DNA of 64,000 bases from Haloarcula mannanilytica (GTDB taxonomy: Archaea; Halobacteriota; Halobacteria; Halobacteriales; Haloarculaceae): assembly GCF_005406125.1 (NCBI RefSeq), contig NZ_BIXZ01000002.1, positions 496,001 through 560,000 on the forward strand, written 5' to 3'. The notes under the pieces were generated by a model, which did not search any database, was not told the DNA's origin, and was given only the letters and a program-made list of their open reading frames with translations. A program made the translations under genes and the position numbers. The number at the start of each line of letters is the position of its first letter. The first letter of the stretch is position 1. Positions 24,228-36,798 of this stretch are shown here, in pieces.

Positions 24228-24348
24228 GATCTTGTTCCGTAACTCATAGGGCTGAATAAATATGTTCGGGAACCCCACAGTTAGGTGACGCCTGGACGGA
24301 GCCAGCGAGAAGTAGGGAGTTACTACGCTTGCCGTCAGTTTGCAGGAG

Positions 24349-24463
24349 AAATACTGCCTCCCGGGTTGTGAACCAGAGGAAGACTTACTCCGTTCGTCTT
24401 CCAGGGTTCAAATCCGCTCGGAGCAGACTTTCCGCTCGGCGTGCTTGCCTCGCGGAAAAGATA
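24349..24463. repeat. tRNA-Phe trailer module: decayed tRNA 3'-end copy with hairpins
   Basis: Immediately 3' of tRNA-Phe (on its strand) lies a hairpin with arms TTTCCGC/GCGGAAA near 24429-24458. Beyond it is an inverted copy of the T-arm half (GGTTCAAATCCGC, 24404-24416 on the plus strand), then a GGAAGAC/GTCTTCC hairpin (24378-24401), then a degraded direct copy of the tRNA 3' end (GCCTCCCGG at 24356-24364, against 24468-24476 in the tRNA, spacing 112 bp). The same plan is found at tRNA-Val and tRNA-Arg. Confidence 0.6.
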
Positions 24464-24537
24464 TGCCGCCTCCCGGATTTGAACCGGGGACAGCTCGATC
24501 TTCAGTCGAGTGCTCTCCCAGTCTGAGCTAAGGCGGC
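24464..24537 (-). tRNA. tRNA-Phe (GAA)
   Basis: The minus strand folds as a complete tRNA of 74 bases. The acceptor GCCGCCT pairs with AGGCGGC, with discriminator A at 24464; the D arm is AGCTCAGACTGGGAGAGC; the anticodon stem GACTC-like arm carries the loop CTGAAGA with anticodon GAA; the T arm is CCCGG-TTCAAATC-CCGGG. No intron is seen and CCA is not encoded. Confidence 0.96.
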
Positions 24538-24626
24538 GCGCACTCCAAGCGACGACGAGGGTAGAAAAAAGGATTTCGAAAGCCGGCGGAGGTTGCGGTG
24601 ATGCTAACTGTGAGGGCTACTTCCGG

Positions 24627-24746
24627 CTACGGAAGAAACAAATCCGCGCTGTCGAACGTCTTGCCACAGTCCTCGCATTCGTATTCCGTCCCGTTAGCCG
24701 TCGAGACGGTCCCGCTGCAGGCCGGACACGTCGAGCCATCTATCAT
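24627..24746 (-). CDS. Zinc-ribbon microprotein, 39 aa
   Basis: This small gene encodes MIDGSTCPACSGTV... and ends ...DSADLFLP. Two knuckles, CPAC at residues 7-10 and CEDCG-type C-x-x-C at residues 24-27, are spaced as in zinc ribbons. ATG is at 24744-24746 and TAG at 24627-24629. Composition and the intact knuckles argue that it is real; haloarchaea encode many such microproteins. It lies alone between tRNA-Phe and tRNA-Val with no clear operon partner. Function unknown. Confidence 0.75.
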   Translation of the reverse strand: MIDGSTCPACSGTVSTANGTEYECEDCGKTFDSADLFLP

Positions 24747-24930
24747 GGCCTGCGGTAACACAACACTCAATAAATGTCTTTCGGGACCTGTCGGTAGAGC
24801 GTGATTATTTGCTAGATGAACCCGTGGCGCTCAGTCTCGACGCCGCGAGAAGCACAGCGGGTCCGGTTTCGTGTCCGAAGCGAAACGAGGGCTCAGGAGC
24901 GCGGTGCTCTCTCTGCGGATTCGAACCACG
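24747..24930. other. Intergenic stretch without a recognised gene
   Basis: No credible reading frame was found here. Near 24915-24928 there is a further partial tRNA-Val T-arm-like segment (GCGGATTCGAACCA), which suggests that an older copy of the trailer module preceded the one at 24931. Confidence 0.4.
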
Positions 24931-25059
24931 TCAGAAGTGGGTCCGGGCGGATTCGAACCGAAGGAAGACTCACTGCGTTCGTCTTCCAGAGTTCGAATCC
25001 GCTGTTCCACACAGACACCGCTGGCTCCTCACTTCGTTCGTCGCAGTCGGTGTCAGAAG
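24931..25059. repeat. tRNA-Val trailer module: tRNA 3'-end copy with hairpins
   Basis: A 29-bp segment at 24931-24959 is identical to 25053-25081, the 3' end of tRNA-Val and its flank, exactly 122 bp apart. Between them lie GGAAGAC/GTCTTCC (24963-24990), an inverted T-arm half TTCGAATCCGC (24993-25003), and a GACACCG/CGGTGTC hairpin next to the tRNA. On the tRNA strand the trailer therefore contains GCGGATTCGAA, the complement of the tRNA's own T-arm half. Confidence 0.75.
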
Positions 25060-25133
25060 TGGGTCCGGGCGGATTCGAACCACCGGCCTCGGCCTTGTAA
25101 AGGCCACGTCATAACCAACTAGACCACGGACCC
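25060..25133 (-). tRNA. tRNA-Val (TAC)
   Basis: The minus strand folds into a 74-base tRNA. The acceptor GGGTCCG pairs with CGGACCC, with discriminator A; the D arm is GGTCTAGTTGGTTATGACG-like; the anticodon stem GGCC encloses TTTACAA with anticodon TAC (UAC); the T arm contains GGTTCGAATCC. CCA is not encoded. Confidence 0.96.
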
Positions 25134-36537: not shown

Positions 36538-36725
36538 TACGTCCGGACGGAGTTCCACGCGAGCAAAGCGAGCGTGGAGCTCGCCGGTCGTGAACGAAGT
36601 GAACGTCCGGACGGCGATTTGAACGCGCCGAGAAATGCTCGCTTCGCTGCGCGTTCCTCGTCTGCTCAAATCTCCGCGTCGAGTTTCGCCGACACCTGTC
36701 GCTCGCGGTTTGGTGTCGGCAGAAA
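36538..36725. repeat. tRNA-Arg trailer module: two extra tRNA 3'-end copies with hairpins
   Basis: CGTCCGGACGG occurs at 36540-36550, 36604-36614 and in the tRNA at 36726-36736, so there are two decayed copies plus the real end. The nearer copy is exactly 122 bp from the tRNA, the same spacing as at tRNA-Val. Between it and the tRNA lie an inverted T-arm half (CTCAAATCTCCGC, 36665-36677) and a GCCGACACC/GGTGTCGGC hairpin. The outer copy carries a TCCACGC/GCGTGGA hairpin. No gene was found in 36413-36725. Confidence 0.7.
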
Positions 36726-36798
36726 CGTCCGGACGGAGATTTGAACTCCGGTCCCTGGCTCCGCAAGCCAAGAGGATAGTCCACTACCCTATCCGGAC
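36726..36798 (-). tRNA. tRNA-Arg (GCG)
   Basis: The minus strand folds as a 73-base tRNA. The acceptor GTCCGGA pairs with TCCGGAC, with discriminator G; the anticodon stem TTGGC/GCCAG-type encloses TTGCGGA with anticodon GCG; the T arm contains GAGTTCAAATCTC. No CCA is encoded and no intron is seen. Confidence 0.95.

What the first reader, a model, noticed from the sequence alone, without database searches (positions are those of the whole stretch)
24340..25133. Shared hairpin module built from tRNA 3' ends, downstream of tRNA-Phe and tRNA-Val
On the transcribed strand each tRNA is followed by the same series of parts. First comes a strong hairpin, then a segment complementary to the tRNA's own T-arm half (GCGGATTCGAA at Val, GCGGATTTGAACC at Phe), then a GGAAGAC/GTCTTCC hairpin, then a second copy of the tRNA 3' end. 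At Val the copy is 29 bp, identical and 122 bp away; at Phe it is decayed and 112 bp away. The sequences differ but the plan is the same, so this is not a simple dispersed repeat. The trailer could pair with the T arm and influence tRNA maturation. It could instead be the scar of a very small integrating element that uses tRNA 3' ends.
Basis: seen in the sequence. Interest (0 to 1): 0.68.

Follow-up and report, generated by a model that had tools for sequence, protein, structure and literature searches.

The report
Hairpin cassettes at haloarchaeal tRNA ends
Salt-loving archaea carry, right behind up to about half of their tRNA genes, small (about 120-base) non-coding hairpin cassettes that come and go precisely and duplicate the tRNA's own tail each time, an apparently undescribed kind of mobile DNA array whose enzyme is not yet known.

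Summary
Behind tRNA-Val and tRNA-Phe lies one unit each of a family of ~100-145-bp non-coding cassettes: hairpin A, an inverted copy of the tRNA's T-arm half, hairpin B, then a direct copy of tRNA nucleotides 53-73. In this genome 18 of 43 tRNA genes carry a unit by a strict test; none does upstream. The pattern occurs in 79 of 81 haloarchaeal genomes and near chance level elsewhere in the phylum. Orthologous tRNA genes in sister species are precisely empty, or filled by different units with the same flank behind, and tandem units decay with distance from the tRNA. Hairpin-B cores 28-48 nt long recur nearly unchanged at tRNAs for different amino acids, while the inverted segment matches the local tRNA. 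Hairpins show compensatory changes and strand-specific GA/GNA caps. I conclude these are small mobile or recombining cassettes inserted at tRNA 3' ends, probably non-autonomous and mobilised by a site-specific recombinase on a folded single strand (inferred; no enzyme identified). A role in tRNA maturation is not supported. I found no description in the literature library, Rfam, or phage and plasmid records.

The parts
25059..25133 (-). tRNA-Val(UAC) gene; its nt 53-73 (25080-25060) are the proximal repeat
   Evidence: ARAGORN and Rfam RF00005; repeat D2
25014..25054 (-). Val unit, hairpin A (GACACCG...CGGTGTC with GA/GA cap and C-GAA-G triloop)
   Evidence: fold; compensatory changes in 15 relatives
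24991..25002 (-). Val unit, inverted T-arm half GCGGATTCGAAC
   Evidence: inverted repeat, 12/12; covaries with own tRNA across 237 units
24963..24987 (-). Val unit, inner hairpin B GGAAGAC-GAACGCAGTGA-GTCTTCC
   Evidence: GA..GNA..GA cap motif
24938..24958 (-). Val unit, distal direct copy of tRNA nt 53-73, paired in the fold with the inverted half
   Evidence: 100% direct repeat at 122 bp
24830..24937 (-). Remains of an older, decayed unit behind the first one (second GTTCGAATCCGC at 24926-24915)
   Evidence: D3 copy; resembles the GGGAGAGC.. units of sister species
24464..24537 (-). tRNA-Phe(GAA) gene
24428..24459 (-). Phe unit, hairpin A TTTTCCGC-GA-GGC..GCC-GA-GCGGAAAG
24405..24417 (-). 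Phe unit, inverted T-arm half GCGGATTTGAACC
   Evidence: 12/12
24378..24402 (-). Phe unit, inner hairpin B GGAAGAC-GAACGGAGTAA-GTCTTCC
   Evidence: homologous to the Val hairpin B, D1
24352..24374 (-). Phe unit, decayed distal copy GGTTCACAACCCGGGAGGCAG (one inserted base in the T loop)
   Evidence: the same insertion recurs at Phe in sister species
36604..36725 (-). A further unit of the family, behind tRNA-Arg(GCG) 36726-36798 (copy 20/22, inverted half 10/12)
   Evidence: locus L055

Best explanation
[quoted passage not shown] Insertion leaves an intact tRNA in front and pushes an extra copy of tRNA nt 53-73 (T loop to discriminator base) behind it. Repeated insertion builds tandem arrays whose outer units decay, and recombination between copies removes units cleanly. 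Shown: the exact empty and filled sites, the sharp duplication boundaries, the tandem arrays with polarised decay, reuse of the same cores at different tRNAs, matching of the inverted segment to the local tRNA, and conserved strand-specific hairpins. Inferred: the cassettes are non-autonomous; a site-specific recombinase (most likely a tyrosine integrase, which uses the same tRNA sites) acts in trans; and the tRNA-sense strand folds so that inverted half plus T-arm copy form a double-stranded recombination site, the way attC sites of integron cassettes work. They most likely do nothing for the tRNA.
For: Clean empty/filled pairs: tRNA-Tyr is empty in 7 relatives, filled by one unit in G000/G020 and by a different one in G006, with the same kind of flank behind. 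tRNA-Arg(CCT) is empty in G000, G017 and G009, and filled by different 100-121-bp units in at least 7 others; G019 carries a G005-type and a G003-type unit in tandem. Sister genomes at 4-5% flank divergence differ. The duplication is sharply bounded in 199 first units: 95-100% identity from nt 53 to nt 73, falling towards background on either side. Polarised decay: first copy better than second in 42 arrays, the reverse in 7. Near-identical cores sit at tRNAs for different amino acids (68 pairs), while the inverted half covaries with the local tRNA (up to z 19). An Asp-type unit sits behind tRNA-Thr in G027. GA-capped hairpins: 119 units sense strand, 4 antisense, 3 shuffled; triloop GNA in 65 of 77, a loop class known for very stable DNA mini-hairpins (PMC4686876). 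Compensatory change in hairpin A: 21 cells against 7.9 expected. No A-C avoidance in strict stems (10 G-T, 11 A-C; tRNA control 31 and 0), as expected if resident copies decay freely. A 3.66-kb element with a tyrosine integrase occupies the same Tyr site and duplicates the same tRNA end.
Against: No recombinase is tied to the units: integrase gene number and cassette number are uncorrelated over 80 genomes (Spearman 0.004). No virus, phage or plasmid record carries a unit. Haloarchaea recombine readily, so gain by transfer plus homologous recombination could mimic insertion. A free or circular form was not seen and cannot be looked for here. G-T exceeds A-C in the inverted-half helix and at the cap-proximal pairs, so RNA-level selection is not excluded.
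Confidence: 0.55

Rival explanations
1. Host-functional trailer RNA: the unit is transcribed with the tRNA, and its hairpins (with the inverted half either pairing the T-arm copy or competing for the real T arm) tune 3' processing, termination or a trailer-derived small RNA.
For: Fixed order and orientation behind tRNAs, sense-strand-specific caps, compensatory changes, order-wide distribution, boundary exactly at the mature tRNA 3' end, some G-T excess over A-C in part of the helices.
Against: Present at only part of the tRNAs (18/43, 8/23, 2/21, 3/20, 14/21 in five genomes) and absent from orthologues in sister species. Distal units decay. Where the copy has changed, the inverted half still matches the tRNA (48 positions) rather than its pairing partner (7). 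Strictly defined stems show no G-U preference.
Confidence: 0.2
2. No dedicated mobility: hairpin-prone tandem repeats that expand and shrink by replication slippage, template switching and homologous recombination, and spread between strains by ordinary gene transfer; hairpin correction keeps the inverted half matched.
For: Units are flanked by >=21-bp direct repeats and are strongly palindromic, both recombinogenic; hairpin-A and hairpin-B types are shuffled in the Val array of 28 relatives; direct-repeat-mediated deletions are documented in Haloquadratum (PMC3119063).
Against: Does not explain why nearly identical 28-48-nt cores sit at tRNAs for different amino acids, why the caps are strand-specific, or why only tRNA 3' ends are used (79 of 86 scan hits). 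Hairpin correction would match the inverted half to its neighbour copy, yet it matches the tRNA.
Confidence: 0.18
3. Scars or attachment-site remnants left by larger integrative elements or proviruses after internal deletion.
For: Integrase-bearing elements use the same sites and leave the same duplication (G012 tRNA-Tyr); tRNA 3'-end duplications at proviruses are known in haloarchaea (PMC3119063, PMC8371274).
Against: Uniform size and internal anatomy in hundreds of units at 37 isoacceptors; the ends of the 3.66-kb element show no hairpin A or B; 0 hits of the full motif in 2.9 million viral contigs.
Confidence: 0.05

Closest known systems
Gene cassettes and attC sites of integrons
   Same: Tandem arrays of discrete cassettes at a fixed chromosomal site; each unit ends in a hairpin that, from one DNA strand, could rebuild a double-stranded recombination site; discrete units are reshuffled between strains.
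   Different: No integron integrase neighbour, no gene in the unit, the site is a tRNA 3' end and the repeat is tRNA nt 53-73, and many different sites per genome are used. Strand transfer was not shown.
Integrative elements and proviruses at tRNA 3' ends (archaeal tyrosine recombinases such as IntSNJ2)
   Same: Same target, intact tRNA restored in front, 3'-end copy left behind (PMC8371274); an integrase element sits at the very same Tyr site in G012.
   Different: Far smaller, no genes, arrays at up to about half of the tRNAs, internal inverted copy of the target, not found in viral contigs.
REPINs / REP elements and MITEs
   Same: Short non-coding palindromic elements, non-autonomous, with conserved hairpins.
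   Different: Bound to tRNA 3' ends, 21-bp duplication of the target, tandem arrays, target-matched inverted segment; no RAYT or transposase ends recognised.
CRISPR arrays
   Same: A ~21-30-bp repeat alternating with ~100-bp units, the oldest and most decayed at the far end.
   Different: The repeat is a tRNA end, the units are homologous hairpins rather than captured foreign DNA, no cas genes, different repeat at every tRNA.

Membership tests
Integron cassette array | Integron-integrase gene next to the primary site | tested here: not met
   ORFs around the two tRNAs were read by eye and show no integrase near the site; many sites per genome lack room for one
Integron cassette array | Folded single-strand attC-like site at the end of each unit | tested here: inconclusive
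   The hairpin and strand-specific caps are present, but recombination of a folded strand was not tested
Integron cassette array | Discrete units gained, lost and reordered at a fixed site | tested here: met
tRNA-targeting integrative element | Duplication of the tRNA 3' end around the insert with an intact tRNA kept | tested here: met
tRNA-targeting integrative element | Insert encodes its integrase | tested here: not met
   Units are 76-190 bp, too short for an integrase gene
MITE/REPIN | Terminal inverted repeats or REP tags matching a transposase family | not tested
   No transposase-linked full-length relative was sought; ends are tRNA sequence, not terminal inverted repeats
CRISPR array | Identical repeats with unrelated spacers and cas genes | tested here: not met
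   Units share a common fold and homologous cores; repeats differ for every tRNA
Known RNA family (Rfam 15) | Match to a curated covariance model | tested here: not met
   Only the two tRNAs match above the gathering score
Stable structured trailer RNA | Expression as RNA | not testable with these tools
   No transcript data available

The most novel reading that the evidence does not exclude
A haloarchaea-wide, integron-like system in which tRNA genes serve as the integration platforms. Gene-less cassettes travel as folded single strands; in the fold, a target-matched inverted segment turns the tRNA T-arm copy into the double-stranded site that a recombinase joins to the chromosomal tRNA, building arrays behind most tRNA species.
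Probability: 0.28. Interest if true: 0.92.

Novelty: categorically new. Interest (0 to 1): 0.8.

Why it matters
If right, nearly every haloarchaeal genome carries around ten copies of a mobile or recombining array next to its tRNA genes, and no description was found with the means available here. It would be among the smallest site-specific mobile DNAs, would show how one hairpin core adapts to many different tRNA targets, and would make a single-strand, hairpin-based recombination route testable in genetically tractable archaea such as Haloferax volcanii. It also changes annotation practice: partial tRNA copies behind tRNAs should not be read as provirus ends by default.

Tried and rejected
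Chance or local duplication: rejected by the upstream controls and by distribution. A dispersed repeat independent of tRNAs: rejected, 79 of 86 scan hits lie behind a same-strand tRNA. Rfam family: none. Larger units with genes between the same ends: far copies in 8-kb loci were mostly second tRNA genes or ordinary tandem units. Integrase gene dosage explains unit number: no correlation. k-turn/k-loop reading of the GA/GA cap: considered and dropped, because the two inner pairs covary as Watson-Crick pairs (AC/GT, GC/GC, GT/AC) and there is no 3-nt bulge. My first pattern for the cap was mistyped and found nothing. Literature searches found no description; subscription journals are largely missing from that library.

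Full report
OBSERVATION. The Val trailer has a 30-nt identical direct repeat of the tRNA end at 122 bp, and the inverted segment GCGGATTCGAAC is fully complementary to the T-arm half of both copies. The Phe copy is decayed (81% over 21 nt, 112 bp away). The two hairpin-B segments are homologous (88% over 49 nt). Both trailers fold significantly better than shuffled sequence.

GENOME-WIDE. I located 43 tRNA genes in the window's genome, fetched their surroundings and compared each tRNA 3' end with its own downstream and upstream DNA. A direct copy (>=16/22) lies downstream of 18 genes and upstream of none; the inverted T-arm half (>=10/12) lies downstream of 18 and upstream of none. tRNA-Phe and one tRNA-Met have more decayed copies, and a tRNA-Pro missed by the RNA search has a perfect one. 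The anatomy is constant: mature tRNA end, T-rich bases, hairpin A, inverted T-arm half, hairpin B, direct copy of the tRNA end. Some arrays hold two or more units (Leu-UAA, Lys-UUU, Asp, Ser-UGA; also Glu-UUC with a decayed second one).

DISTRIBUTION. The motif 'inverted T half - spacer - T half' occurs in 79 of 81 haloarchaeal genomes sampled, with median 10 hits over the 80 tabulated (palindromic hits count on both strands). It occurs in only 13 of 312 other genomes of the phylum, mostly as single hits; the reversed control pattern hit 4 genomes. There were no hits in 2.9 million viral contigs and none in phage or plasmid records. The fraction of tRNAs with a unit varies: 18/43, 8/23, 14/21, 3/20, 2/21 in five genomes (for four of these only about half of the tRNA genes were fetched).

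UNIT BOUNDARIES. In 199 first units the copy matches the tRNA at 95-100% from nt 53 (last base of the T-stem 5' strand) to nt 73 (discriminator base) and falls towards background on both sides. The finder used a 22-nt window over these positions, so the high values inside are partly by construction, but the immediate drop outside it is not.

THE INVERTED SEGMENT FOLLOWS THE TRNA. In 237 units the inverted segment covaries with its own tRNA over the T loop and the 3' strand of the T stem (the purine of the T loop: 97% complementary against 55% shuffled; other positions up to z 19) and not with the acceptor end. Where tRNA and distal copy differ, the inverted segment matches the tRNA at 48 positions and the copy at 7. 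A good part of this comes from a recurrent one-base insertion in the copy, and since tRNAs are constrained while copies drift, the result mainly shows that pairing with the copy is not maintained after insertion.

GAIN AND LOSS. Orthologous sites in the genus show clean empty and filled states. At tRNA-Tyr seven genomes are empty (..GGGCGGAC|TTGGTTTTC..), G000 and G020 carry one unit, G006 a different one, and G012 a 3.66-kb element with a tyrosine integrase (PF00589, E 2e-16), each with the tRNA end duplicated and the same kind of flank behind. At tRNA-Arg(CCT) three genomes are empty and at least seven carry different units in front of the same flank; G019 has in tandem the unit types found singly in G005 and G003. 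Close pairs at 4-5% flank divergence differ. In the Val array of 28 relatives hairpin-A and hairpin-B types occur in many combinations. In arrays the first copy is better kept than the second in 42 cases against 7. I cannot say for each case whether a unit was gained or lost; different units at one site with the same flank make several gains (by insertion or recombination) necessary.

SAME CORE, DIFFERENT TRNAS. Sixty-eight pairs of nearly identical cores (28-48 nt, at most 3 differences) sit at tRNAs for different amino acids. For example CTGCCAGTCGCGCGCAACGCAGTGAGCACGTCTGGCTYC occurs at Val(UAC) with GGATTCGA in front and at Lys(UUU) with GGAGTTGA in front, each fitting its own tRNA. One pair in the list comes from a single module counted for two adjacent tRNAs in L029. 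In G027 an Asp-type unit lies behind tRNA-Thr.

HAIRPIN CHEMISTRY. Both hairpins share a cap: C-G closing pair, GA opposite GA, two pairs (GC/GC, AC/GT, rarely GT/AC), then a loop; in hairpin B a GNA triloop (65 of 77). It is present on the sense strand in 119 of 259 units by a strict test, on the antisense strand in 4, and in 3 after shuffling. Hairpin A of the Val array shows compensatory change on both sides (21 cells, 7.9 expected by shuffling, at most 4 when slid). C-GNA-G is the class of exceptionally stable DNA mini-hairpins (PMC4686876). In strictly defined stems G-T and A-C mismatches are equally rare (10 and 11), whereas tRNA stems in the same data show 31 and 0; but G-T exceeds A-C in the T-arm helix and at the pairs next to the cap. 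The chemistry therefore favours a single strand of DNA folding on the tRNA-sense side without excluding RNA.

MECHANISM. The data require units that are inserted or exchanged as discrete blocks exactly at tRNA 3' ends, that reuse a few hairpin cores, and that decay when displaced. The likeliest reading is a non-autonomous mobile cassette. A tyrosine recombinase is the obvious candidate because integrase elements use the same site, but integrase gene number does not track cassette number and no enzyme is linked. Folding would turn the T-arm copy into a double-stranded site, which gives a reason for the target-matched inverted half; this step is inference, and the comparison with integron attC sites rests on my own knowledge of integrons.

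KNOWN KINDS. It resembles integron cassettes in logic and tRNA-integrating elements in target (PMC8371274), but fails defining features of each. I found no description in Rfam or in the open-access library; subscription literature could hold one. 'Categorically new' is a judgement about the whole combination; the individual ingredients (tRNA target, hairpin site, tandem array) are known.

Noticed in passing
L037, L383-L402 (tRNA-Arg CCT); L003, L023, L025 (tRNA-Val): A second class of unit repeats the acceptor end instead: an inverted acceptor half, a hairpin (GCGAAACCTTCGGTTTCGC or GGGAGAGC..GCTCTCCC) and a copy of the acceptor end.
   Followed up: partly
window 24352-24374; L011, L018, L020, L025, L059, L042: Distal copies at Phe, Ile and Val(GAC) share a one-base insertion in the T loop (GGTTCA-C-AATCC), in several species; it would be an extrahelical base in hairpin B.
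   Followed up: no
L381 (G000:C5:59700-60600), L382 (G000:C1:681700-682400): GA-capped GNA hairpins also occur in clusters downstream of protein genes, away from tRNAs; the cap motif is about twice as frequent as its reversed control in the genome (76 against 35).
   Followed up: partly
L367 (G012:C3:2428400-2432900): A 3.66-kb integrative element with a tyrosine integrase at tRNA-Tyr, exactly where relatives carry small cassettes.
   Followed up: partly
L233 (G027 tRNA-Thr GGT): An Asp-type cassette with the tRNA-Asp 3' end lies behind tRNA-Thr, apparently moved from another tRNA.
   Followed up: no
L107, L113, L115 (tRNA-Gly GCC), L240 (G027 tRNA-Asp): Whole tRNA genes duplicated in tandem at short distance (about 120 to 450 bases) within such arrays.
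   Followed up: no
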